Shown piece by piece: positions 6,755-36,691 of a stretch of DNA of 43,753 nucleotides (positions within the stretch are counted from its first letter, which is position 1; every line of letters begins with the position of its first letter). Source of the stretch: a virus. Position numbers and translations under genes: made by a program. A model generated the notes under the pieces. That model ran no database searches and had not been told where the DNA came from. It saw only the letters and a program-made list of their open reading frames with translations. The stretch covers positions 1 through 43,753 of the IMG/VR virus record IMGVR_UViG_3300024255_000051, one strand, 5' to 3'.

Positions 6755-7274
6755 TTTCGTATTCCTTTTTTACTTCCTCTGGTATTAAACCTAATTTACA
6801 ATAGATAATATTTAATGTCATTCTTTGTTGATTACTGTACGTGTGTACATCATGCCAGTTATCTTTGTGGTTAGGTAAAACAACTGCATTGTTGTATTTC
6901 CAATCAGTTGTTCTTACATATTCTTTATTAGCATTATATATTGCTGTTCCGTTTGCTTCTGGTGATAATTGACAAACAACTGTCATATGTTTGTATTTTT
7001 GATCAACATGTATATTTGACGATGCGTTATCAAAATTATTATATTGATATAACATATCGCATTTTTGAAAATAGCCTCTATTTAAAAAATTACATAACCT
7101 AGGATATATAGAGTTTGCAAACTTTTCTAAATTTGGATCATTTATAATTATACGTCGATTATTATCTGTAATATGGTCAAACATGTTTTTAACATATTTT
7201 AATTGTTTCGGAGGTAGAAAGTTTTCAATTTCTAGATACTTCCAAGGTTTGTAATTAATAATCACTCTGTCCAT
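6747..7274 (-). CDS. 2-oxoglutarate/Fe(II)-dependent oxygenase-like protein
   Basis: 175 residues, the size of small phage 2OG oxygenases. The iron triad is visible: His89-x-Asp91 in NIHVDQKYKHMTVV, a distal His in NWHDVH (141 or 144), and Arg151 in QRMTLNIIY, placed to bind the 2-oxoglutarate carboxylate. The double-stranded beta-helix pattern (short strands before and after HVD, then GTAIY) fits prolyl-4-hydroxylase-type enzymes. The substrate cannot be told; in this operon a nucleotide sugar, glycan or glycan-linked protein is plausible. Its ATG shares one base with the stop of the upstream nucleotidyltransferase-cupin gene (TAATG). Confidence 0.78.
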   Translation of the reverse strand: MDRVIINYKPWKYLEIENFLPPKQLKYVKNMFDHITDNNRRIIINDPNLEKFANSIYPRLCNFLNRGYFQKCDMLYQYNNFDNASSNIHVDQKYKHMTVVCQLSPEANGTAIYNANKEYVRTTDWKYNNAVVLPNHKDNWHDVHTYSNQQRMTLNIIYCKLGLIPEEVKKEYENG

Positions 7275-8035
7275 TAATCACGTCTTTCTATATCTTCTTC
7301 GGTTAGATTGTTACCCATCCAAACTTCAATAACCTTAGCATCTTTATTATCTAAATTTATAGCCTTATGCCACCATCCAGTTGGAATATCAATACTATCA
7401 CCCGGTGTTAATAATGTAGTAGTTTGATTACCTTGTTTATCTTCAAGAAACATATTGATTACACCGTCTACAACATGCCAGTGTTCACTGCGTTTAAAAT
7501 GTCGTTGATCGCTAAGTGCTTGTCCTTCTGCAAACGTAAGTTCCTTTACTTGCCATGCGCCGTTACGATCTAAAATTTTGTACTCACCCCATGTACGTTT
7601 AGTTACAGGCTTTTCCCAATTTTCTAATATCCAACTACTTGAATTCTTTTTATCTTCGCCACCAACTCCAAAAACAAATTCTACGCTATTATGATCGCCA
7701 TATGTATTTTGCTCTTTTACATTACCGTCTATTCTATCGCCGCCATTAGCAACTATAAGTTTATCTGTTGTAGTTTGTAAAATATTTCCTATAGCCATAT
7801 CAGCACTATCGTTACTATCGTCAAATCCAATAACTTTATCTACAACAGCTAATTCCTTGATTATTGCACACCTTTCTGCAAAAGGCATGAACGGTCTACC
7901 TTTTTTACGAGTAAGCCAGGTATCGCTGTTTACACCTACAACTAAGGTATCTCCTAATTTTTTAGCAGCTTTAAAATATTCTATATGTCCAGAATGTAGT
8001 GGGTCAAATCCACCTGTGACCAAAACAGTTTTCAT
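7274..8035 (-). CDS. Cytidylyltransferase (HldE-C/RfaE-like) fused to a sugar-isomerase-type cupin
   Basis: 253 residues. Residues 1-135 are a nucleotidyltransferase of the RfaE/HldE C-terminal kind: VTGGFDPLHSGHIEYF carries the HxGH motif, and VVGVNSD follows as in the family, where the enzyme activates heptose-1-phosphate or a glycerol-type phosphate. Residues 150-253 are a cupin like the C-terminal domain of type II mannose-6-phosphate isomerase/GDP-mannose pyrophosphorylase: WGEYKIL, HFKRSEHWHVVDG, IDIPTGWWHKAIN and TEEDIERRD. The fusion suggests one enzyme that both activates and isomerises or senses a sugar. It heads a leftward operon of four genes. A perfect TATAAATA octamer lies five bases before the ATG, so the message is probably leaderless. 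Confidence 0.85.
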   Translation of the reverse strand: MKTVLVTGGFDPLHSGHIEYFKAAKKLGDTLVVGVNSDTWLTRKKGRPFMPFAERCAIIKELAVVDKVIGFDDSNDSADMAIGNILQTTTDKLIVANGGDRIDGNVKEQNTYGDHNSVEFVFGVGGEDKKNSSSWILENWEKPVTKRTWGEYKILDRNGAWQVKELTFAEGQALSDQRHFKRSEHWHVVDGVINMFLEDKQGNQTTTLLTPGDSIDIPTGWWHKAINLDNKDAKVIEVWMGNNLTEEDIERRD

Positions 8036-8040
8036 ACTGA

Positions 8041-8048
8041 TATTTATA
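8041..8048 (-). promoter_or_regulatory. Late promoter TATAAATA, leaderless spacing
   Basis: Exact T4 late-promoter octamer read leftwards, followed by TCAGT and then the ATG at 8035. With T4 geometry (start about six bases after the octamer) transcription would begin at the A of the ATG. Confidence 0.75.
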
Positions 8049-8061
8049 TGCGTATATAATT

Positions 8062-8069
8062 AATAAATA
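8062..8069 (+). promoter_or_regulatory. Late promoter AATAAATA, leaderless spacing
   Basis: Octamer read rightwards, then CTTTT and the ATG at 8075, again a five-base gap. It lies back to back with the leftward octamer at 8041-8048, making a compact divergent promoter. Confidence 0.7.
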
Positions 8070-8074
8070 CTTTT

Positions 8075-8680
8075 ATGAGTTATTATATATACAAAACCCC
8101 GACACCTTATATTTTTATACATATACCTAAGACTGCCGGGCGTAGTATTACAAATGCATTATCATCAAAATATGACATAGAACTTATACCTAACAACGAT
8201 ACCGAAACTGACAATTATCATAGCACAATACATCATGCAAAACAACTAGTTGATACAAGCAAATATCATGTATTTTCAATTGTAAGAAATCCATACGATA
8301 GAGTTTGTAGTTATTTTAATTTTAGAAAAAGAAAAATTGAAACTGGAAAGATTAGCACAATAGAAGAAATTGAAGCAACAAAAAAAGGAATTGATTATTG
8401 GTTTGATGCGTATTCAAACAATAATTGGGAAGGTACATGGTTTGGTTGCTATAATAATCAAACAGAATGGATAGATGAAACAGTTCAAGTTATAAGATTT
8501 GAAGATATAAAATATATAAACTCAATGCCATTATTTGCAAATATAGATATGCCTAAAACAAAATATAATAAATCAGATAATCACAAATTACATTATCATA
8601 ATATTGTATCTAGCAAATTAAGAAAACGCATAGATCATGTTTATGAAAAAGATTTTGATATGTTCAAATATCAGTGGTAA
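8075..8680 (+). CDS. Sulfotransferase-like protein
   Basis: 201 residues. The two PAPS-binding elements of the sulfotransferase family are plain: a 5'-phosphosulfate loop FIHIPKTAGRSI at about 14-25 and a 3'-phosphate element SIVRNPYDRVCSYF at about 68-81. These proteins transfer sulfate from PAPS to sugars or other acceptors. The gene stands alone on the plus strand behind its own late promoter, and its last ten bases overlap the end of the opposing GT25 gene. Together with the glycosyltransferases around it, sulfation of a surface glycan is the simplest inference. No signal peptide, so a cytoplasmic enzyme. Confidence 0.85.
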   Translation: MSYYIYKTPTPYIFIHIPKTAGRSITNALSSKYDIELIPNNDTETDNYHSTIHHAKQLVDTSKYHVFSIVRNPYDRVCSYFNFRKRKIETGKISTIEEIEATKKGIDYWFDAYSNNNWEGTWFGCYNNQTEWIDETVQVIRFEDIKYINSMPLFANIDMPKTKYNKSDNHKLHYHNIVSSKLRKRIDHVYEKDFDMFKYQW

Positions 8681-9390
8681 TTTCTTGTAAGGCTTTCTGT
8701 TTTTATATTATCACCTAAAGAATAAAAAGGATGTAATCTTGCAACAGTGCATTCGGTAGTCTGCAATCTGTTTATGCCGCTGCCAATTTGTTGGTCTGCA
8801 GGCCTATGTCCTTTTCCGTGCCTATTCATTTTAATCCAATGTATTAATTTTTTTGCTGCATGTGGCTTTATAATGTAACTATAAGCACCTTTAAAGTATT
8901 CTGCACCAGTTCCAATTTTTAATGTATTCTTTGGTGCTGGATTTTTATAGTCAATTACACGTAATTTGCTTTTTATAGATTTGTCAACTGTTTGATTATA
9001 TTCTTTACTGTAAGGATCATAGCGATCTAATTTTAATATATCGTCAAATTGTTCTAATATATTATCTGGCAAAGGTCGTATAAAAAATCCATCATGCTCT
9101 AGTATAATTATAGGTCGATTAAGTTTAGCACATTTGTCCCAAAGATAATAATGACTAAAGAAACAACCAAGCACACCTGCTCTACCTTTTTTGATTGCTT
9201 TAGGAGGCCTTGGTACGCCTGATTTAATATATTCGTCGTTTGCATTTTTGCCATCAATTGCTTGAAAGTACTGTGCTGTTATACCATTAGCTTCTGCTGC
9301 AACTTTGCACTCATACGCCATATTACGTGAATGTTTGTTATTTTCTAATCTAATAATGTAAGCAGGAATTAAATGTTTGGCTTTCTTCAT
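8671..9390 (-). CDS. Glycosyltransferase family 25-like (LPS-type) protein
   Basis: 239 residues. Typical GT25 landmarks: IPAYIIRLENNKHSRNM at the start, YFQAIDG, then GCFFSHYYLWDKC at about 75-87 and IIILEHDGFF, where EHD (98-100) takes the place of the usual ED/DD metal motif. The C-terminal SYIIKPHAAKKLIHWI and PADQQIG stretches also fit. GT25 enzymes add galactose or similar sugars to lipooligosaccharide. The ATG overlaps the TGA of the FkbM gene, which is in turn coupled to uvsY, so this is the last gene of the recombination operon. Confidence 0.85.
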   Translation of the reverse strand: MKKAKHLIPAYIIRLENNKHSRNMAYECKVAAEANGITAQYFQAIDGKNANDEYIKSGVPRPPKAIKKGRAGVLGCFFSHYYLWDKCAKLNRPIIILEHDGFFIRPLPDNILEQFDDILKLDRYDPYSKEYNQTVDKSIKSKLRVIDYKNPAPKNTLKIGTGAEYFKGAYSYIIKPHAAKKLIHWIKMNRHGKGHRPADQQIGSGINRLQTTECTVARLHPFYSLGDNIKTESLTRNYH

Positions 9391-24764: not shown

Positions 24765-27700
24765 TTATAGACCTGCGATCTCGCCTGTGTTTTTAATACG
24801 CAACGGAATATATATAAATTCAATTGCTTTTACAGGTTCGATAGCTATATCTACATATAGCTCATTTCTATCAATTCTTGCTGGTGTGTTGTTAGTTTCA
24901 TCACACACAACTAAGAAGTCATATAGTGCTCTAAGTCCAACTAATTCTACCATTAAACTTTCTACTTGCTGCTTGATTTCATCACGGGTGATTTTATCAT
25001 TTGGTTCAAATAGATAAGGTTTGGCAAGTTGATTTAACTGACTACGTAAGTAAACAACTAGTCTTGCAACATTAACTCTATCTAATGCACTTGCATTTTT
25101 AGCACGAGTTTTTTGTCCAAATACAACTAATCCTGCACCATTTAAGAAAGTAATCGGATTAACATTGTTTCTATACAATGTATCACGCTGACCTTCGTTT
25201 AGTGCAATACTTACAAATTCGTCCTCGGCATTTATGTAACCTACACTAGAAGCATTTGTTACTCCGCCGCGTCTTGTACCTGCTGGTGCAAACCATGGAT
25301 AAGCAACTTGGTCATTAAGTGCAAATGTACGTAGTACCATATGCGATGCTGGAACAACAACATTGTTACCTGTGTTATCACTTGTAAGTCCACTTGGATA
25401 ATAAACACCTAAGTATTCATCGCTTGTTACAAGACCGTCATCGTTATCTTCAACTGCTAGTTGTTGGTTAGTTGCCCAATTTTCTAAGCTAGTTGCGTCT
25501 GGTGTTAGTCTCATTGGACTATCTCCAACTACAAATGCAGTTAGTCCTCTATCAAAGTTTAGAGTAATCATTTCGCCTATTAGCTCAGAATATCCTGGGC
25601 AAGCAATTAAGTTAAATGTTCTTGACTCGTCATCTCTAATATCTTGGTTACTATTCATTAATGATTGTAAAGCCTGCGTTACAACTTTACGCTGTGCTGA
25701 TCTGCCAAATGTTCCGCTACCGTCTGCTTGATTACCTGATTCAGTAACCCAACGGTGTGGATAATAACTAGACATATCTTGATCGCCAAAACGTGTGTTC
25801 TTAGCTGTTAGATCAATGTAGTTACGCTCAAAACGTCTTACATTAAATCCACTTCTACGTAAATTCCATAGCAACATACCTTTTGGATAAAGTGCAGGAT
25901 CTGGTGCATCTGGGTCTAAATAATTACTTGAATTTAAATCTTCGATGTCTGCTGCGGTTGCTGCGTCTGCGCCAGTTGTGTTATAACGTGCATCGGCAAA
26001 TAGTATGCCATTTTCAGTAGTTTGATCAGTACTATCTAACAATGTCCACTTTGATAGTGTTGCATTGTAAATGTACACTTGTGGATAATTTTCTAAGTCT
26101 GCTGTGCTAACCCAAATATCACCAGTAACTAAGTTACCACTATCAGAACGATCGCCGTTCTTAGGTTCTGTGGCACTTACAATAGGACCTTGCGAATCCG
26201 GTGAAGTGTTTGGATCAATGTTATAATATGGACTAGTTGAATGATTAATACCTACCCATGTAGTACCGTTATGAACAAGCATATCAACTTCGTCTATTGT
26301 ACTGCTGTACCATAGAGCACCATTCGCTGCAAGAGCAGTAGGCGCATCGTTGCTTGCACTATAAACTAAAGGTGACCATAAACTAATTACTAGTTTTTCA
26401 GGATCGCTATCTGTTTCACCTGGTTGCCAATATAAATTCTGTGTACCTGTTTTAGTAGTTGCATTATAAGGTGCAAACCCAGCGAATGTTAAAGCATTAT
26501 TAGTATCAGTAATTCTAATTTCGCCGCCTAGTGTATGAGAAATTGTTATTCTGTTTTGAGAATCTACACTTGCAACAACATTAGTAAATCCTGCTGCGTT
26601 AATTGCTGCTACTAATATTTGTGCGTCTGCTGTTTGTCCAGCTGCTGTAAATGAGATTGTTTTAGCAGAATCTAATGCTTCTTGTGATTTTAAACTTTCC
26701 TGAATTGTAATATTATAACTACCACCTGCAAATGTAGATGCTAATATTTTATTACTTGTAATTGATGCTGCACCGCCAGCACGTTTAACAAATATTTTGA
26801 AATTTGCTGTATTTGCAGTTTGTTCAAGAGCATTTGATTGAATGTAAACTGTACCTACTGGTATGTTTGCACCGCCGCCTGTTCTATCAAGTGCGTAAAT
26901 TGCCCCTTGATTGGTGTCATATATCGGAGAGCTTGTTCTATTCCAAATTTCAGTTTCACCATTAAATTGTTTTACTCTCCAATCTGCACCAAGGTTTGGT
27001 GTAGTTGTTTTAATCCAAACACTTCCGCTTGGACGAGTATCGCTATCATTTGTTTTGAATAATGGTACATCTGTGTGCTTACTAATTTGTGCTTTAGGAG
27101 CAAGATAGAAACCTTCGTCAATACCAGCTGCTGCCATTGGCTGACCTGCACCATCTACAATTTGTATCTGGTCACTACCGCTACGATCGTTTAAAATTAC
27201 TAATTTATTGTTTCTTGCTTCTGCTGAAACACCTGTGATACCTGCACCATTGATATCTGCTACCAAAGTAGTCAGTGTGTTACCAGACAATGTAATCTGA
27301 ACTGATTCTGCACTGTCTGAGCTTGCATTGATTACGAAAGTATCACCAATGGAACCTATTGTTGAAGAAATTGCAATTGAACCTGTTACAGAAGGAATAC
27401 TTCCGCTCCAGTCTGGATTGCCAACAATTACCCACGTATCGTCGACATTTTTATAATATATTTTAACAATGTTTGATGTTGTTACAACAGCATATTCGCC
27501 TTTTTGTCCTACCCAGCTTCCAGGGGCGGCAGTTGCATCTGCACCAATTAAATCTGTCTTGCTTGTGATAACACGAGGAGTTTTTGCTATAAATGTTTGA
27601 CCTGTTTCAGTTGTAGCTGCTGAAGCGTCCCATTCAAAAATTCCCCATTCTGTTGTTTGTGTATCTAACCACCATGTACCGTCTTCTGGATTTGCGGTTG

Positions 27701-28076
27701 TTGGTGTTGAGCTTGCGTTTAAACTATTTAAGTCTACGTCTGCTCTAACTACATATGCTCTATTGCTTACGCCTAGATAACTATATGCAGCTTGTAAACC
27801 ATATTCGTTTTGTTCACCGCCTTGTACAACATTATTGTTTACGTCAGTAACAAATGTTGGATCTCCAAATGTTTCTACCAGATCTCTCTGCGATGTCATC
27901 AGGTAAACCTTACCTGCGTTTGCTTTTAGTGTGCCAGGTGCAACTCCAGTGCCCCCGCCATTCAGCTTATTTTCAGCTGTTGCTACAAAAATAATTGGTG
28001 TTGTACCAGGTTCAGCTGGAGTATAGAAACTTTCGTCTATAACGCTAACCTGAACACCAGGTGATGTTAGTGCCAT
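24765..28076 (-). CDS. 18: Tail sheath protein gp18, enlarged
   Basis: 1103 residues (T4 gp18 659). Sheath landmarks at both ends: ALTSPGVQVSVIDESFYTP at the start, RDLVETFGDPTF and LQAAYSYLG-VSNRAYVVRA near 64-112; the C-terminal third (VFGQKTRAKNASALDRVNVARLVVYLRSQL, then IEPVKAIEFIYIPLRI) carries the subunit-linking core. The extra length lies at about 125-690. It holds four short Trp-rich units of the form GxxWxxT...W (near 133, 351, 586 and 652) and two copies of a flagellin-hook-like repeat (253-319 and 468-534). These likely sit on the outer sheath surface. Promoter GCTAAATA is 37 bases upstream and a GAGGAGAA ribosome site precedes the ATG. Confidence 0.93.
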   Translation of the reverse strand: MALTSPGVQVSVIDESFYTPAEPGTTPIIFVATAENKLNGGGTGVAPGTLKANAGKVYLMTSQRDLVETFGDPTFVTDVNNNVVQGGEQNEYGLQAAYSYLGVSNRAYVVRADVDLNSLNASSTPTTANPEDGTWWLDTQTTEWGIFEWDASAATTETGQTFIAKTPRVITSKTDLIGADATAAPGSWVGQKGEYAVVTTSNIVKIYYKNVDDTWVIVGNPDWSGSIPSVTGSIAISSTIGSIGDTFVINASSDSAESVQITLSGNTLTTLVADINGAGITGVSAEARNNKLVILNDRSGSDQIQIVDGAGQPMAAAGIDEGFYLAPKAQISKHTDVPLFKTNDSDTRPSGSVWIKTTTPNLGADWRVKQFNGETEIWNRTSSPIYDTNQGAIYALDRTGGGANIPVGTVYIQSNALEQTANTANFKIFVKRAGGAASITSNKILASTFAGGSYNITIQESLKSQEALDSAKTISFTAAGQTADAQILVAAINAAGFTNVVASVDSQNRITISHTLGGEIRITDTNNALTFAGFAPYNATTKTGTQNLYWQPGETDSDPEKLVISLWSPLVYSASNDAPTALAANGALWYSSTIDEVDMLVHNGTTWVGINHSTSPYYNIDPNTSPDSQGPIVSATEPKNGDRSDSGNLVTGDIWVSTADLENYPQVYIYNATLSKWTLLDSTDQTTENGILFADARYNTTGADAATAADIEDLNSSNYLDPDAPDPALYPKGMLLWNLRRSGFNVRRFERNYIDLTAKNTRFGDQDMSSYYPHRWVTESGNQADGSGTFGRSAQRKVVTQALQSLMNSNQDIRDDESRTFNLIACPGYSELIGEMITLNFDRGLTAFVVGDSPMRLTPDATSLENWATNQQLAVEDNDDGLVTSDEYLGVYYPSGLTSDNTGNNVVVPASHMVLRTFALNDQVAYPWFAPAGTRRGGVTNASSVGYINAEDEFVSIALNEGQRDTLYRNNVNPITFLNGAGLVVFGQKTRAKNASALDRVNVARLVVYLRSQLNQLAKPYLFEPNDKITRDEIKQQVESLMVELVGLRALYDFLVVCDETNNTPARIDRNELYVDIAIEPVKAIEFIYIPLRIKNTGEIAGL

Positions 28077-29493: not shown

Positions 29494-30648
29494 ATGCCAA
29501 AGCTAAGTTTATATAGACCACATAAGTCAAATGATTATACGTTTTTAGATAATTCTATTTACGAAATGTTCACGGTCGGCGGTACAGATTTTATGATACA
29601 TAAGTACATTGGGACAAAAAATCCTGATGCTGATGATGCTACTTCCGATCAACCACAATACGATGCAGTTAGTGAAACAAACATACAAGATTTATTGTTT
29701 CTTGAAAATAGAGATCGAAAGTATGATAAGGATGTGTACACATTACGTGGGCATTACAACGTACAGGATAATGATTTTGATTTAAGTCAATTTGGATTAT
29801 TTTTAAGCAACGATACATTATTCTTGACTGTACATATTAATAGTAGTGTAAAAACAATTGGTCGTAAACTAATGCCAGGAGACGTAATAGAATTGCCGCA
29901 TTTAATTGACGAATATGCAGCAAACGAATTAGATATTGCTTTAAAAAGATTTTATGTAATTGAAGACATTACTAGAGCAAGCGAAGGATTTAGCCAAACT
30001 TGGTATCCACATTTGTATAGAATAAAAGTAAAACAAATCTATGATGGACAAGAGTATAAGGATATCTTAGATTTACCAGCGGCAGAAGGTAGTGATAAAA
30101 CTCTTAGAGATGTTCTAAGTACTTTTGAAATTGAAATGCAAATAAACAATGCTGTTGTTCAACAGGCAAATGATGATATTAAATATGCAGGATATAGTAC
30201 TGAACAATTTTATACAGTACAAGTGGAAGATGACGGTAGCGTTAGTCTTGTTACTGTTGATACTAACGAAATTGATGTTTCAAATGGCATTGAAGCAGAT
30301 AGACTATTTCAAACGCCACTTGCAAGCGGCTACTTAGGATATCTTGTTGGAGACGGCATACCACCTAATGGAGCACCTTTTGGAGTTGGATCTACATTTC
30401 CACTTGTATCAGTTGAAGGTGATTATTTTTTACGTACAGATTTATTGCCTAATAGATTATTTAGATATAGCGGCAGTTCGTGGTCAAAGGTTGAAGATAA
30501 TGTACGAGCAGAACTTTCAAATACAGATACTAGAAATACCCAACTAGGAACATTTATTAACAACACTACAATAAACGAAATATCCGGTGAAGAAGTAGTT
30601 GAAAGACAAGCACTAAGTAAAGCTCTAAGAGCAAAGGCAGATAACTAA
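29494..30648 (+). CDS. 14: Neck protein gp14-like, extended
   Basis: 384 residues (T4 gp14 256). PKLSLYRPHKSNDYTFLDNSIYEMFTVGGTDFMIHKYIG, then IQDLLFLENRDRKYDKDVYTLRGHYNVQDNDFDLSQFGLFL and FYVIEDITRASEGFSQTWYPHLYRIK, is the gp14 core I know from marine T4-like phages. Residues about 270-345 (GDYFLRTDLLPNRLFRYSGSSW) add a surface-type Trp-rich unit also found in gp15 and gp18. It starts the plus-strand unit of 14, 15 and Nudix, five bases after a late octamer. Its stop overlaps the gene 15 ATG. Confidence 0.85.
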   Translation: MPKLSLYRPHKSNDYTFLDNSIYEMFTVGGTDFMIHKYIGTKNPDADDATSDQPQYDAVSETNIQDLLFLENRDRKYDKDVYTLRGHYNVQDNDFDLSQFGLFLSNDTLFLTVHINSSVKTIGRKLMPGDVIELPHLIDEYAANELDIALKRFYVIEDITRASEGFSQTWYPHLYRIKVKQIYDGQEYKDILDLPAAEGSDKTLRDVLSTFEIEMQINNAVVQQANDDIKYAGYSTEQFYTVQVEDDGSVSLVTVDTNEIDVSNGIEADRLFQTPLASGYLGYLVGDGIPPNGAPFGVGSTFPLVSVEGDYFLRTDLLPNRLFRYSGSSWSKVEDNVRAELSNTDTRNTQLGTFINNTTINEISGEEVVERQALSKALRAKADN

Positions 30649-32414
30649 TGCAATATTTTTATGACGGCCAAGTAAGACGATATGTAACACAAATAGTACG
30701 AGCATTTAGTAATTTTAGCTACAAAGACGGTGATGGAGATCTAAGACAGGTACCTGTAACTTATGGAGATCTTACAAGACAAGTTGCTAGTATTATGAAA
30801 GACAACAGTGAAAATAAGATACCTAGTGCTCCACGTATGGCTGTATATATTACTGGCTTAGAAATGGACAGAAGTCGAACAAGTGATAGTAGTTTTGTAA
30901 GTAAAGTTAATTTACGTGAAAAAAAGTTTGACGAAGCTACTAGTTCATATTTGCAAGAACAAGCTAAAGGTTATACTGTAGAACGATTGCATCCTAGTCC
31001 ATTTACATTAAGCGTAAATGTAGATTTATGGAGCACCAGCACAGATCAAAAATTACAATTATTAGAACAAATATTAATGTTGTTTAATCCTAGTTTAGAA
31101 TTTCAAACAAATGATAATTATGTTGACTGGACAAGTTTAACCACATTGTTTATGGAAAACATAGAATTTAGTTCAAGAACAGTGCCGGTTGGAACTGAAA
31201 GCGAAATTGATATTTGCACTATGGGCTTTACTACTCCAATTTATATTTCGCCTCCAACAAAAGTTAAAAAACTAGGTATTATTACAAAAATAATTACCGG
31301 TATTGTTAACAGCGATACAGGAGATTTAGAATTAGACGGCTTTACACCTGATCCTGATAGCGAAGCTGCATTAACACCAGAAGGGTTACTTCCTGGGCAA
31401 TCAACAGGCAGCACTGGTTTAGGAACAACTTTAAACCCAGTCATTAACAGCTACAGAAATTATGGTGTAAACATAAACGACGAAATAGCATTGTTAGCAA
31501 CTAATAAATTATTGCATCTACCTGATGTTCACTGGTTCGATGTTATAGAAGCAGAACTACCTTCTCAATACGAACCAGGTATAACTCAAATAGAGCTTAG
31601 AAGAAGTTATTTTACTACAAATGTAAGAGGTACAATAACCGTAAATAACAATAACACAACAGAACTGTTAATTAATTATGACGAAGATACTTTGCCTAGC
31701 AACACACTAATTGAAGGTCCAGCGAGAAATGCAGCACAGTATGGAACCATTGATTATATAATAAACCCAAGGACATTTAATCCTACTAGTGTTAAGGTGC
31801 CCGGTGTAAGAATTTTAGTTTTAGATGCTATTGGTAATGCTACTTCACGTAATGTTGTTATTAGCGGAACTACTAACAGAATTGATACATATGTAGATTA
31901 TTATATCAATGAAATAACTAAACCTAGTAATGTTAATAGTGGCACAGCATTTCCAGGATCTCCAAATGTAGGAGATTTATTTTACAGAACTGATGAAGAA
32001 AAGTTATATTTTTATCAACAATCTTGGTGGCTTGCAGATAAAGTTACTAGTGCAGAAGTTACAGTTAACGGTGAAACTGTTGGTGCAACAATAGAAAACA
32101 TAGGAGAACAAGTTTCTTTAATTTTAGCAAGTAACATATCTCCTGATGATAAAGTACAATATACTCTGCATTACAACGACGACGGTGCCGATGCTTGGAA
32201 AAATTCTGATAACACAGATTTCTTTGCTGATCAAAATGATATTGTAGAATGGACAGGATCAAAATGGACAATTGTGTATGATGCAAGTGAATACACTACA
32301 CCTGTTTTTACAACCAATTTAACAACTGGAGTACAATACGTATATAGTGATAACATGTGGGTAGAAAGTATTGACGGTTACTATCCAAAAGGTACATGGA
32401 GTATCCTTTTATAA
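30648..32414 (+). CDS. 15: Tail terminator/sheath stabiliser gp15-like, extended
   Basis: 588 residues (T4 gp15 272). The first 210 residues align by eye with T4 gp15: FYDGQVRRYVTQIVRAFSNF, RQVPVTYGDLTRQVASIM, PRMAVYITGLEMDRSRT, LHPSPFTLSVNVDLWSTSTDQKLQLLEQILMLFNPSLEFQ and TMGFTTPIYISPP. gp15 caps the tail and binds the neck. The C-terminal 370 residues are extra beta-rich matter, including GDLFYRTDEEKLYFYQQSWWLAD. The ATG overlaps the gene 14 stop. Identity good, function of the extension unknown. Confidence 0.85.
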   Translation: MQYFYDGQVRRYVTQIVRAFSNFSYKDGDGDLRQVPVTYGDLTRQVASIMKDNSENKIPSAPRMAVYITGLEMDRSRTSDSSFVSKVNLREKKFDEATSSYLQEQAKGYTVERLHPSPFTLSVNVDLWSTSTDQKLQLLEQILMLFNPSLEFQTNDNYVDWTSLTTLFMENIEFSSRTVPVGTESEIDICTMGFTTPIYISPPTKVKKLGIITKIITGIVNSDTGDLELDGFTPDPDSEAALTPEGLLPGQSTGSTGLGTTLNPVINSYRNYGVNINDEIALLATNKLLHLPDVHWFDVIEAELPSQYEPGITQIELRRSYFTTNVRGTITVNNNNTTELLINYDEDTLPSNTLIEGPARNAAQYGTIDYIINPRTFNPTSVKVPGVRILVLDAIGNATSRNVVISGTTNRIDTYVDYYINEITKPSNVNSGTAFPGSPNVGDLFYRTDEEKLYFYQQSWWLADKVTSAEVTVNGETVGATIENIGEQVSLILASNISPDDKVQYTLHYNDDGADAWKNSDNTDFFADQNDIVEWTGSKWTIVYDASEYTTPVFTTNLTTGVQYVYSDNMWVESIDGYYPKGTWSILL

Positions 32415-32422
32415 TATAAGTA
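32415..32422 (+). promoter_or_regulatory. Late promoter TATAAGTA, leaderless spacing
   Basis: Octamer right after the gene 15 stop, then TTTTT and the Nudix ATG at 32428 (five-base gap). This also decides the Nudix start. Confidence 0.65.
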
Positions 32423-32427
32423 TTTTT

Positions 32428-32868
32428 ATGGATAAGATAATCTGTAGCGGTGCGTTGTTTTATAGCCTAACAACAGAAAGATTTTTACTGTTATATAGAA
32501 CTAAGAAAAGCACTAACAATACTAATTGTTGGGGTTTAGTTGGCGGTAAAAACGAAGGCAGTGAAACTCCTTGGCAAGGACTACAAAGAGAAATAGAAGA
32601 AGAAATTGGATTCATTCCAGAAATTAAAAAAACAATTCCTTTAGAAAGTTTTATTAGCAGTGATAATAATTTTAGCTTCCATACGTATCTATGCTTAATC
32701 AATGAAGAATTTATACCAAGGCTAAACAAAGAACATAGTAGTTATGCTTGGTGTAGCTTTAGTCACTGGCCAAAACCTTTGCATACAGGTTTAGCAAATA
32801 CATTACGCAGTAAAACTAACAAAAATAAATTAGAAACAGTTATACAAGTTGCACATTTGATTTCTTAA
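32428..32868 (+). CDS. Nudix hydrolase
   Basis: 146 residues from the ATG at 32428; an earlier in-frame start at 32371 lies inside gene 15 and is rejected. A complete Nudix box GxxxxxExxxxxxxREUxEExGU is present as GKNEGSE then REIEEEIGF, with Glu residues for metal binding. These enzymes cleave nucleoside diphosphates linked to another moiety, such as ADP-ribose, nucleotide sugars or capped RNA ends. The end overlaps the opposing 654-residue gene by 29 bases. Substrate unknown; cleavage of a nucleotide sugar would fit the glycan theme, but that is inference. Confidence 0.9.
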   Translation: MDKIICSGALFYSLTTERFLLLYRTKKSTNNTNCWGLVGGKNEGSETPWQGLQREIEEEIGFIPEIKKTIPLESFISSDNNFSFHTYLCLINEEFIPRLNKEHSSYAWCSFSHWPKPLHTGLANTLRSKTNKNKLETVIQVAHLIS

Positions 32869-34804
32869 ATTCTTTTTCAAGCCAATCAAAATCATTTATT
32901 CTACGCAAATCTTCAGGGGAATCGGCATACTTTTCACCGTAGTTTTTGCCGTGAATAGCCCCTGCAATTGCGTATTCTCCAAATGGCTTATCTGCACCTC
33001 GAGTACACCATGCTTCTAGTCTAAAATTCGTTTCGTCTTCTTTTTGCCTATGTATTGTTTTACTTGCTAACTTTACACATTCTCTAAAGCCACTACGCCA
33101 TGCACTAAACGGATCTGTGTTAAAGGCAGTAGTATTACTCATTACTTCTATTCCTTTGAACTTGTTACTAATACTAGTAGTCATATCACTGCTATACACA
33201 TCCATATTTTTTGTAAGACGTGTTGGTAATAGTTTTACACCACCATATCCGTAGACTAAGTTGTTAATTGGATTGTAACTACGCCAAACATGCACAGTGT
33301 TTTTACCATCAATATCATAATGCGCAATTTGATAATCAAAGTTAAAATTATCTATTATATTTGCATCGCCGTCTACTACCCAAAACATTTCAGTCTCTGC
33401 TGCTTTTGCAGCCATAATATGTGCTTGATGAATACCTTTAATACCGTGTACACGATGTATTACTCTATCAGGAAATTGTTCTACAAGTTTTTTAAAATTT
33501 TCATCTGCATTAGGTTCGTTATAACTTATAAACACTATATCATACAGAGACGGTGTTGTTGCTTGTATGTCGTGTTCTTTTTTATTTGCAAAAAATCTAT
33601 ATTCAAATTCTTTTCTGCTTATTCTTAAATTTTTACTAATTAAAGCTAGGCCATCATAGTACATATTATTTTTAAAAATGTGATGTATATTTCTATTAAA
33701 AGAATCGTGATGACTTATGTAAAAATCAAAGTTAAAATCATCTTTAATGTTTAAATCAGAATAAACCATCCAGAACATATCTTCTTCTATTTCGTTACAA
33801 GCATTCATATAATCTTTATAAGAATGTACTGCCCATTTTTTAAAACTTTTTGGATAACTTGCTACTATGTCTAGTTCATTTTTTGATACATAAAATCTGT
33901 GTTCTATTTCTTTTTTAGAAACTTTTTTATCACGGGGTAATAATACTATACCGTCTCTGTGTTTGCCATTTAGAAATACTTGTACAACATTCTTATTTTG
34001 ATAAGATACATGATAATCAAAATTGAAATCTTCTGCAACTTCTACGTCACTTGGAATAGCCCAGAACATTTCTGTCTGACAATGTTCTAAAGCATTTTCA
34101 TAATCGCTATAACTATCTACTTTAAATTTTTCATAAGGTACCGGATCGCTTGCAATGACTTTTATTTGTTTTTTGTTTGCATAAAATCTATAATCTAATT
34201 CTCTCTTGTTAAAATTATAATTCTTTGGAATCAAACAAACGCCATCCATCATATCACTACTACCGTTACCAAAGACGTGTATATTATCTATACTCCAGTA
34301 ATCAGGCTTGTAGTTAAATTTAAATGTATCTCTAACAATTACATTATTAGGCACAGCCCAAAATAGATCTGTAGTAGATTTTTCTTGTGCTTCTAAAATG
34401 TCTTCAGGGGAGTTAATATAAAAATAATCAAATTTATCTTTGCTATTATATATGTCATAAAAACATGCAATATAATCTGATTTTACTGTTTTGTAATCGC
34501 CTTCTTTTGTTGGCACTAGTCTAACTGTGTCGTATGATCTAACTTTTTTACTATCTTTGTATACCTGAGGGAAAGCATGTATAGCAGGCTCTTGCCCTAT
34601 TGCAGGTTTATAATACCAAGGAAAACTTTGTAATACTTCTACACTTGGATCAACTAGCCAAACGTATTCTTCACTGCCTTCCCATTCGTAAATTTCTTCA
34701 TCACTGTGGACAACAGGAAATTGTGTTAGGATATGATTTTTTAAATAGTCTTGTCCATTATGTAGATGTTGACCAAATAATTCAAACTTATCAAATACGT
34801 TCAT
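32840..34804 (-). CDS. Five-unit glycosyltransferase-like repeat protein
   Basis: 654 residues built of units of about 98-130 residues. Each has an anchor: EEYVWLVDPSV (45), DLFWAVPNNV (146), EMFWAIPSDV (245), DMFWMVYSDL (342) and EMFWVVDGDA (472), followed by FNFDY-like strands and, in units 2-4, KKEx(E/D)YRFYxxKxExxIxA. Only the last unit keeps an aspartate pair (VVDGDAN), the DxD spot of GT-A transferases. After it, KLLPTRL and TTAFNTDPFSAWRSGFRECVKLASK look catalytic-domain-like. So one active unit may be preceded by four that lost the motif. Coupled to the 203-residue glycosyltransferase by a 14-base overlap. Exact reaction unknown. Confidence 0.7.
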   Translation of the reverse strand: MNVFDKFELFGQHLHNGQDYLKNHILTQFPVVHSDEEIYEWEGSEEYVWLVDPSVEVLQSFPWYYKPAIGQEPAIHAFPQVYKDSKKVRSYDTVRLVPTKEGDYKTVKSDYIACFYDIYNSKDKFDYFYINSPEDILEAQEKSTTDLFWAVPNNVIVRDTFKFNYKPDYWSIDNIHVFGNGSSDMMDGVCLIPKNYNFNKRELDYRFYANKKQIKVIASDPVPYEKFKVDSYSDYENALEHCQTEMFWAIPSDVEVAEDFNFDYHVSYQNKNVVQVFLNGKHRDGIVLLPRDKKVSKKEIEHRFYVSKNELDIVASYPKSFKKWAVHSYKDYMNACNEIEEDMFWMVYSDLNIKDDFNFDFYISHHDSFNRNIHHIFKNNMYYDGLALISKNLRISRKEFEYRFFANKKEHDIQATTPSLYDIVFISYNEPNADENFKKLVEQFPDRVIHRVHGIKGIHQAHIMAAKAAETEMFWVVDGDANIIDNFNFDYQIAHYDIDGKNTVHVWRSYNPINNLVYGYGGVKLLPTRLTKNMDVYSSDMTTSISNKFKGIEVMSNTTAFNTDPFSAWRSGFRECVKLASKTIHRQKEDETNFRLEAWCTRGADKPFGEYAIAGAIHGKNYGEKYADSPEDLRRINDFDWLEKEFKKSNVQLV

Positions 34805-35402
34805 GATTATTCTCTAATGTAAATGCTTTAGTACCTATGTGCGCTAACATTTTGCTAGTATCGCAATCGACAAAAACTTTGTAGCCATTGTCTCTTGCTA
34901 ATTTACAAAACCAAATATCTTCGCCTGCAAAATTATCTATATCTTCATTATATTGGTGATTAAACCAAGGCTTGGGCAATTGCTTGTATACATCAGTTTT
35001 TACAAGCATACAACCCATACCAACTGCATACACTTCATGAAGCCCTCTTGTTTTCCTAAGTCTGGTAGGCGGATTATCAAAGTCAACAAAGGCTACTGTA
35101 TTGTAAGGTTTGTATCTAGTGCTATAGGTACACGCAGCAATGTCTTTATTATGAGACAACAACTTTTTAATTATAGTAGGAGGAATATGCATATCACTAT
35201 CCATCCAAAGTATATAATCAGCACCCACGTCTAATGCTTCATTAACCAACGCATTCCTACTGTTTGCAATTACAGTTCCTAAGACAAAATGCAACGAAAA
35301 GTCAATATTCTGTTTTGTAAGATATGAGGTAAGGTTTGCTAGAGCACGAGCAAAAACAGTATGCACCGTGTCTCTAGCAGGAATGCAAAGAGCAAGTTTC
35401 AT
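34791..35402 (-). CDS. Small GT-A (GT2-like) glycosyltransferase
   Basis: 203 residues. ALCIPARDTVHTVFARALANL is the first strand-helix, VIANSRNALVNEALDVGADYILWMDSDMHIPPTI the nucleotide-sugar region with DSD, and AGEDIWFCKLARDNGYKVFVD the ED acceptor-side motif: the full GT2 outline in minimum length. It overlaps the five-unit protein downstream by 14 bases and follows the 124-residue gene by five. It may modify the tail fibres encoded next door or a host glycan; the position among fibre genes makes the first worth testing. Confidence 0.85.
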   Translation of the reverse strand: MKLALCIPARDTVHTVFARALANLTSYLTKQNIDFSLHFVLGTVIANSRNALVNEALDVGADYILWMDSDMHIPPTIIKKLLSHNKDIAACTYSTRYKPYNTVAFVDFDNPPTRLRKTRGLHEVYAVGMGCMLVKTDVYKQLPKPWFNHQYNEDIDNFAGEDIWFCKLARDNGYKVFVDCDTSKMLAHIGTKAFTLENNHERI

Positions 35403-35407
35403 TTTAC

Positions 35408-35782
35408 TTAAAGTGTCTGTGGTACTGATTCTGTAGCGAATTCTTTTTCTGCTGCTACTGTAGAATTGTTAATGTCACGAGCTGTTGCAGTACAAACTTT
35501 TACTGCTTCAGAAAAATCTTCTGCTGGTAATGCACTTGCACTTAGCATATGATCTGGTTGCACTTTACCAATAGTAATTAAGTCAGCGCCCATTAAGCGA
35601 CCATAAATTTGTATCCAATGATAACGATCGTCATCATCTGGTATATCCATTGAAGCTATAGTTTCTTTTACTTGTGTTGTTAAATCTGCATCTAAAACAA
35701 GTTGATCAAGAACTGCAAGTTTTCTTGCTTTTGTATATTGTTGTGCCAAGTCTACGTTTAAGATTTCGTAAAGCGTTTTCAT
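35408..35782 (-). CDS. Unknown small protein of the tail-fibre cluster
   Basis: 124 residues, mostly helical, acidic; KTLYEILNVDLAQQYTKARKLAVLDQLVLDADLTTQVKETIASMDIPDDDDRYHWIQIYGRLMGADLITIGK. I do not recognise it. AGGAGTAACT precedes the ATG. It lies between a tiny virion-type protein and a glycosyltransferase. A fibre assembly chaperone is possible from size and place only. Confidence 0.7.
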   Translation of the reverse strand: MKTLYEILNVDLAQQYTKARKLAVLDQLVLDADLTTQVKETIASMDIPDDDDRYHWIQIYGRLMGADLITIGKVQPDHMLSASALPAEDFSEAVKVCTATARDINNSTVAAEKEFATESVPQTL

Positions 35783-35988: not shown

Positions 35989-36017
35989 ATACTAACATAA
36001 TATATATCATAGGTCAA
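35989..36017 (-). promoter_or_regulatory. Possible sigma70-type promoter of the 57-residue gene
   Basis: TTGACC (36012-36017) and TAGTAT (35989-35994), read leftwards, at 17 bases. The -10 is the same as that of gene 32. A TATAAG that overlaps the -10 could instead be a late element. It overlaps the stop of the S74 gene. Confidence 0.4.
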
Positions 36018-36691
36018 CTGTTTTTTAAGTCATTTACGATTTCAGTTAATTTTTCAATTTGCGTCTGCTGTTCTTTAATTGCTTCGATTAGCAGTGGAAC
36101 AAGTTTGTCATACTTAACTGTTAGATATTGTGAATCAACTGGAGCAGGGCCAACAACTTCAGGTAATACTGCTTTAACTTCTTGAGCACTTACCCCTGTT
36201 TGTCTATTAGGATTATCATACCCTAAACTTCTAGCAACATTATTTTCAGTGTATAGATATCCGTTTAGTTTTTTAACTTTGTCAAGTGCATCTGGTATTG
36301 TACCTTCAAAATCTTTTAAACGTTCATCTGAATAGTATGCTGTAACTTCGCCTGTAGCAGTAAAGTTACCAGTGACTTGCATTTTAGCAGCACCGTTGTC
36401 ACTTGTACTACCTACAAGAACGTTACCGCCAAATGGTGCTAATTTCAACAAACCATTGTCTTCAACTTCAATGCTCGGAACACCTGATACATCGTTAACA
36501 CTAAAAATAGTGCCTGTAAGACTAGGTGTAATACTGAACAGTTGTCCAGCACTGCTTTCCCAACTTAGACTGTTGTCATCTAGTACGTTTTGTGTAATAG
36601 GATTGTTATCAAATCCTGTATACACAATACTAGGCAGACCTGCTGCATCTCGTTGTGGTGTAATTGTAATATTTTTATCACTGTTTGCCAT
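36014..36691 (-). CDS. Tail-fibre protein with C-terminal S74 intramolecular chaperone
   Basis: 225 residues. Residues about 115-225 are a Peptidase_S74 domain: YYSDERLKDFEGTIPDALDKVKKLNGYLY starts with the Ser-Asp of the self-cleavage site, then GVSAQEVKAVLPEVV and YLTVKYDKLVPLLIEAIKEQQTQIEKL, the trimeric coiled coil. It assists trimer folding and then cuts itself off. The N-terminal part is a short beta-rich fibre piece (NITITPQRD..., SITPSLTGTIFSVNDVSGVPSIEV, FTATGEVTAYYSD). It has its own late promoter 23 bases upstream and an AGGAAA ribosome site. Confidence 0.9.
   Translation of the reverse strand: MANSDKNITITPQRDAAGLPSIVYTGFDNNPITQNVLDDNSLSWESSAGQLFSITPSLTGTIFSVNDVSGVPSIEVEDNGLLKLAPFGGNVLVGSTSDNGAAKMQVTGNFTATGEVTAYYSDERLKDFEGTIPDALDKVKKLNGYLYTENNVARSLGYDNPNRQTGVSAQEVKAVLPEVVGPAPVDSQYLTVKYDKLVPLLIEAIKEQQTQIEKLTEIVNDLKNS

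What the first reader, a model, noticed from the sequence alone, without database searches (positions are those of the whole stretch)
32840..34804. Five tandem glycosyltransferase-like units, only the last with DxD
Anchors xxFWxV at residues 45, 146, 245, 342 and 472 mark repeats. Four carry DPS, PNN, PSD and YSD where the fifth has DGD. This looks like serial duplication in which four copies lost the metal motif and may now act as sugar-binding or scaffold units for one active domain. I know of no described protein of this plan.
Basis: partly seen in the sequence, partly recalled or inferred. Interest (0 to 1): 0.75.

Follow-up and report, generated by a model that had tools for sequence, protein, structure and literature searches.

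The report
Glycosyltransferase with silenced half-domain repeat array
A phage gene encodes a probable sugar-transferring enzyme whose front half is a chain of copies cut from the middle of the enzyme itself, without the metal-binding motif; related phages carry from none to nine copies, which suggests the chain is a conserved arm or scaffold rather than decaying spare parts.

Summary
The 654-aa ORF (32840-34804, minus strand) has four N-terminal repeats plus a C-terminal domain with DGD. A profile built only from repeats 2-4 hits all 65 non-redundant terminal domains from IMG/VR contigs and no unrelated ORF. Correction: the repeats are not whole glycosyltransferase domains. Each is a ~97-aa copy of the middle of the domain, lacking the first beta-alpha element and the last ~85 residues. 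Across 39 relatives (1-9 repeats each), the last domain has D[GA]D in 64 of 65 cases and repeats have DxD in 6 of 154, so the pattern is family-wide. Repeats are not decaying: dN/dS is about 0.1, as in the terminal domain; they keep their own motifs; each position has its own orthologues. AlphaFold2 predicts three repeats as one rigid array (pLDDT 93, pTM 0.85) without significant PDB match; weak matches are mostly GT-A folds. The full model matches GT-A enzymes. The gene has a conserved place beside tail-fibre, second-glycosyltransferase and sheath-stabiliser genes of T4-like phages. Best reading: one active GT-A enzyme on a silenced, GT-derived scaffold or docking arm. The acceptor (tail fibre or host glycan) and any sugar binding by repeats are inferred.

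The parts
32840..34804 (-). Gene for the 654-aa repeat-array glycosyltransferase (stop codon 32840-32842)
   Evidence: ORF; orthologues 74-97% identical with the same layout in L002-L009 and L025
34502..34687 (-). Repeat unit 1 (aa 40-101), divergent, triplet DPS; likely N-terminal cap
   Evidence: family unit profile 38 bits; units 2-4 profile E=1.5e-4; dN/dS 0.18-0.33
34148..34432 (-). Repeat unit 2 (aa 125-219), triplet PNN
   Evidence: 105 bits; AF2 array model
33857..34135 (-). Repeat unit 3 (aa 224-316), triplet PSD
   Evidence: 116 bits; AF2 array model
33560..33844 (-). Repeat unit 4 (aa 321-415), triplet YSD
   Evidence: 115 bits; AF2 array model
32843..33544 (-). C-terminal complete GT-A-like domain (aa 421-654)
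   Evidence: profile A1 377 bits; pLDDT about 90 in most blocks; Foldseek hits are GT-A enzymes
33365..33373 (-). DGD (aa 478-480), the only intact DxD motif
   Evidence: D[GA]D in 64 of 65 non-redundant terminal domains
34791..35402 (-). Neighbouring 203-aa glycosyltransferase (Anp1/GT2-like, phrog_1574), overlapping the start of the array gene by 14 bases
   Evidence: directly upstream of the array gene in 15 loci
35408..35782 (-). 124-aa conserved neighbour, weak phrog_1409 match
   Evidence: 14 loci
36014..36691 (-). Tail-fibre protein with Peptidase_S74 chaperone domain, upstream in the same direction; candidate acceptor (inferred)
   Evidence: cluster present in 11 loci
32371..32868 (+). 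Convergent NUDIX hydrolase, fixed downstream neighbour
   Evidence: phrog_1198; 19 loci
30648..32414 (+). T4 gp15-type tail sheath stabiliser, fixed neighbour
   Evidence: PF16724; 19 loci

Best explanation
A soluble phage glycosyltransferase with one catalytic GT-A domain at the C-terminus (aa 421-654, metal motif DGD478-480). The N-terminal ~400 residues are an array of GT-derived half-domains that should not be able to catalyse (first Asp of DxD and the NPxNxLxYGYGG loop missing, no first beta-alpha element). They pack end to end into one rigid arm that holds or docks the acceptor and positions the catalytic domain. The number of arm units varies by phage lineage (0 to at least 9). The likely acceptor is a virion protein made from the same gene block, above all the tail fibre; a host surface glycan is the main alternative. 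Shown by computation: repeat homology, motif distribution, constraint, synteny. Predicted: rigid array, GT-A fold. Inferred: activity, arm function, acceptor.
For: Homology of repeats and terminal domain. D[GA]D in 64/65 terminal domains, DxD in 6 of 154 repeats. Repeats under purifying selection like the terminal domain, dN/dS about 0.06-0.17 for units 2-4 with one value of 0.21 in a near-identical pair. Repeat-specific conserved residues (columns F23 W24 H54 N58 G64 L67 E78 R82 F83 K87 K88 E89 S95 of the unit profile). Positional orthology of units. AF2 of aa 125-415: pLDDT 93.4, pTM 0.85. Full model matches GT-A enzymes such as WrtF, RmlT, TarS, ArnC and GalNAc-Ts. Stand-alone terminal domains of ~225 aa occur in many contigs, so the domain is found without the array. 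Copy number 4, 6 and at least 9 at one syntenic locus between a tail-fibre/GT block and NUDIX-gp15. In a second phage group the gene follows fibre-like and other GT-like genes (these two labels are my reading of the sequences, no family match).
Against: No sequence family matches the terminal domain above threshold (Pfam Glycos_transf_2 13.7 bits against a cut-off of 23.3), so GT activity rests on fold and motif alone. Neither donor nor acceptor is known. Full-length AF2 has pTM 0.42, so the arm's position relative to the catalytic domain is not predicted. Position 3 of the triplet stays D/N/E in most repeats, which could mean residual metal or ligand binding. In a second phage group and in Bdellovibrionia the gene lies with radical-SAM genes, which may point to a host-surface or other glycan instead.
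Confidence: 0.5

Rival explanations
1. The repeats are multivalent sugar-binding (lectin-like) modules that hold a glycan or glycosylated acceptor for the catalytic domain.
For: GT-A-derived sequence, several conserved polar residues per repeat, strong constraint, copy-number variation at a fixed locus.
Against: The NPxNxLxYGYGG loop and C-terminal helices, conserved in the terminal domain and so likely to shape its substrate site, are the parts missing from the repeats. Most conserved residues could be structural contacts between units. No direct evidence.
Confidence: 0.2
2. The enzyme alters the host surface (LPS or other envelope glycan) to block superinfection, not the virion; the array binds the polymer acceptor.
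For: Pelagimyophage host-recognition clusters hold tail fibres and glycosyltransferases and were read this way (PMC7029224). The window also has heptose-phosphate kinase/adenylyltransferase-like and sulfotransferase-like genes. UDP-glucose dehydrogenase neighbours in other loci.
Against: In the window's own group the gene has a fixed place among virion genes, next to a tail-fibre gene. No membrane anchor is apparent on reading the sequence (no TM predictor run).
Confidence: 0.25
3. Repeats are decaying, non-functional duplicates.
For: Loss of DxD.
Against: dN/dS about 0.1 in units 2-4, unit-specific orthology, their own motif set in 157 units, confident rigid fold.
Confidence: 0.03
4. All units are active metal-independent or half-site transferases.
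For: Acid or amide kept at triplet position 3 in 134 of 154 units; in the distant L014/L109 proteins some units keep DxD plus the NP..YGGV loop.
Against: No repeat has the C-terminal third of the domain. The first Asp is replaced by P, W or Y in most. Only the last domain keeps every motif.
Confidence: 0.05
5. The protein is itself a virion component (adhesin-like), with the array as a fibre.
For: Location within the structural gene block; rigid array predicted.
Against: No virion family match; the terminal domain conserves a catalytic-type motif set; many relatives are the 225-aa domain alone.
Confidence: 0.08

Closest known systems
Human LH3/PLOD3 (tandem GT-A-like domains, one active)
   Same: An active GT-A-like domain beside an accessory GT-like domain that appears to have lost activity (PMC6082870)
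   Different: LH3 has one inactive accessory domain and a hydroxylase; here 4 (up to at least 9) half-domains precede the active domain, and no hydroxylase is present
GT-A glycosyltransferases of the GT2/GT27 type (WrtF, RmlT, TarS, ArnC, GalNAc-T)
   Same: Best fold matches of the full model; DxD-type motif
   Different: No sequence-family match above cut-off; none of these hits is an array of half-domains, to my knowledge
Pelagimyophage and other aquatic-phage glycosyltransferases
   Same: GTs in tail-fibre regions or core genomes of large aquatic phages, radical SAM genes in some (PMC7029224; PMC12619734)
   Different: No repeat array described in the passages read; whether those genes include this family was not tested
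BFVD A0A6J5LK21 and A0A6J5L5L5 (uncultured Caudovirales phage, uncharacterised)
   Same: Predicted structures match the three-unit array, E=5e-12 and 5e-10, TM 0.5
   Different: 11-14% identity, uncharacterised; not examined further

Membership tests
GT-A fold glycosyltransferase (terminal domain) | GT-A (Rossmann-like) fold | tested here: met
   Foldseek: all 48 hits with E<=1e-3 are GT-A-type glycosyltransferases or the nucleotidyltransferase HddC; the tool does not show which query residues align, and rmsd is high because the multi-unit model was used
GT-A fold glycosyltransferase (terminal domain) | DxD metal/nucleotide motif at the end of a core strand | tested here: met
   D[GA]D in 64/65, at the end of strand 473-478 in the model
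GT-A fold glycosyltransferase (terminal domain) | Nucleotide-sugar transferase activity | not testable with these tools
   needs an enzyme assay
Pfam Glycos_transf_2 (CAZy GT2) | Profile match above gathering score | tested here: not met
   13.7 bits against 23.3; no PHROG, NCBIfam or PDB sequence relative at a credible score
GT-A fold (repeat units) | Same fold as the GT-A core | tested here: inconclusive
   Homologous in sequence to part of the terminal domain and weak Foldseek matches mostly GT-A (best E 0.078), but no significant match and only a partial domain
GT-A fold (repeat units) | DxD motif | tested here: not met
   0 of 4 in the window; 6 of 154 in the family
LH3-like tandem GT/pseudo-GT proteins | 2OG-Fe hydroxylase domain | tested here: not met
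   no such domain found in the 654 aa

The most novel reading that the evidence does not exclude
A new class of repeat protein: a solenoid-like arm built by serial duplication of the middle of a GT-A glycosyltransferase, which lost catalysis but gained its own conserved motifs, copy-number variation and rigid packing, and which serves as an adjustable arm for the one active copy at its end.
Probability: 0.5. Interest if true: 0.72.

Novelty: new variant of a known kind. Interest (0 to 1): 0.6.

Why it matters
Inactive glycosyltransferase domains beside active ones are known, but here a fragment of the fold has become a repeat unit used 1-9 times. The family has no match in Pfam, PHROGs, NCBIfam or the reference phage collection, yet at least 591 IMG/VR stretches encode its terminal domain. 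It gives a clean case for how part of an enzyme fold turns into a scaffold, and a testable handle on what the many glycosyltransferases of large aquatic phages act on.

Tried and rejected
Sequence searches of Pfam, PHROGs, NCBIfam, PDB and the phages collection gave nothing credible for the protein or terminal domain; the benzoyl-CoA reductase N hits and DUF899 are far below cut-offs or weak and taken as chance. Decay of the repeats: rejected by dN/dS. Recent tandem duplication: rejected by the unit tree, though that tree has few columns and many open forks. Alignment A3 could not be used to scan contigs for arrays. A scan with the N-terminal part of L014 gave only itself and L109. Correlating array length with fibre length was considered, not done: many fibre genes are cut by contig ends. 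Papers on tandem or pseudo-glycosyltransferases and on radical SAM in phages gave no description of this plan.

Full report
Observation. Repeats 2, 3 and 4 align with one another at 31-39 identities over 95-98 positions (z 21-35) and with the terminal domain (z 8.5, 14 and 18). Unit 1 is weaker. A profile of repeats 2-4 alone recovers every one of 65 non-redundant terminal domains, over terminal-domain positions about 40-108, with no off-family hit among 2866 ORFs. A profile of terminal domains alone recovers units 2-4.

What a unit is. The terminal domain runs through beta1-alpha1-beta2-alpha2-beta3-DGD, then more strands and a C-terminal helical part. A unit begins at the beta2 equivalent and ends with a long last strand, so it lacks beta1-alpha1 and the last ~85 residues (the exact right-hand limit is my reading of the alignments). 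The loop NPxNxLxYGYGG is replaced by a shorter N-x-x-x-x-DG stretch. In the second phage group the first unit does match terminal positions 1 to ~115, so there the array starts with a fuller N-terminal half.

Family. Of 65 non-redundant proteins, 39 carry units, 157 in all, 1 to 9 each; about two dozen are the bare ~225-aa domain. The sample is mostly the 80 best matches to one query, so these proportions are not population estimates. D[GA]D is present in 64 of 65 terminal domains; the exception, L088, is a short 182-aa copy in which the pattern was not found. DxD occurs in 6 of 154 units aligned over the motif: three in the distant L014, three in unit 1 of other proteins. L109, a full-length relative of L014, has eight units that all keep the first Asp; three of these have DxD (DRD, DTD, DPD) and two of those also keep the NP..YGGV loop. 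This fits an ancestor with more complete motifs and later loss in the main groups, but direction was not tested.

Constraint. dN/dS (Nei-Gojobori, own script) for units 2-4 lies mostly between 0.06 and 0.17, against 0.06-0.13 for the terminal domain; unit 1 has 0.18-0.33. dS is often above 1, so values are rough. The unit tree groups units by position across phages, and places unit 4 of the four-unit proteins with unit 6 of the six-unit ones, so copy number seems to change inside the array (short alignment, many open forks).

Structure. Full-length AF2: mean pLDDT 77, terminal domain about 90 in most blocks, pTM 0.42. Foldseek of that model gives GT-A enzymes and HddC. AF2 of aa 125-415 with 65 three-unit stretches: pLDDT 93.4, pTM 0.85. 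That model has no significant PDB match (best E 0.078); the weak list is dominated by GT-A enzymes such as B4GalT1 and LgtC. In BFVD it matches two uncharacterised phage proteins at TM 0.5. Rigidity is a prediction.

Context. The window is a T4-like myovirus fragment (UvsX, terminase, tail sheath, gp15). The gene is the last of a minus-strand block: S74 tail fibre, 124-aa protein, Anp1/GT2-like glycosyltransferase (14-base overlap), array gene; then convergent NUDIX and gp15. The GT is directly upstream in 15 loci and the NUDIX directly downstream in 19. At this one locus the array has 4, 6 or at least 9 units. In a second group the gene follows fibre-like genes and GT-like genes (my reading; no Pfam match) and precedes radical-SAM genes, 141 ORFs of that cluster in 46 loci.

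Mechanism. Shown: homology, motif distribution, constraint, synteny. Predicted: GT-A fold, rigid array. Inferred: catalysis at DGD, an arm or docking role, and the acceptor. A tail fibre is favoured by gene order; virion glycosylation by phages is known in mycobacteriophages (as cited in PMC12619734; the original paper is not held). The host-surface reading in PMC7029224 remains a serious rival.

Novelty. LH3 shows one inactive GT-like domain beside an active one (PMC6082870). An array of half-domains was not found in the papers searched. I file it as a new variant of a known kind.

Noticed in passing
L058:4415-6666 and L071:4394-6669: The array is split: four units on one ORF, then an overlapping ORF with unit 5 plus the terminal domain, cut at about the same place in two phages; gene fission or programmed frameshifting.
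   Followed up: partly
46 loci, e.g. L065:3-5974, L053:6665-9431: Runs of several radical SAM/SPASM genes beside the glycosyltransferase domain in viral contigs; substrate unknown.
   Followed up: partly
L104, L105, L106: Bdellovibrionia/Bdellovibrionales MAG contigs carry a pair of these GT domains with radical SAM genes; L106 also has fibre-like genes and is flanked by what read as pheT/pheS-like genes, so the module may not be only viral.
   Followed up: partly
L019:4107-5672: Same terminal domain behind a different N-terminal sequence with repeated W.LDP-like motifs; the terminal profile finds no units there.
   Followed up: no
L034 and L044, ends of the array genes: About 215 extra residues follow the terminal domain.
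   Followed up: no
window 7274-9390: Sugar-type genes: heptose-phosphate kinase/adenylyltransferase-like, galactose-3-O-sulfotransferase-like, 2OG-Fe oxygenase-like.
   Followed up: no
window 24765-28076: Long tail sheath protein, 1103 aa.
   Followed up: no
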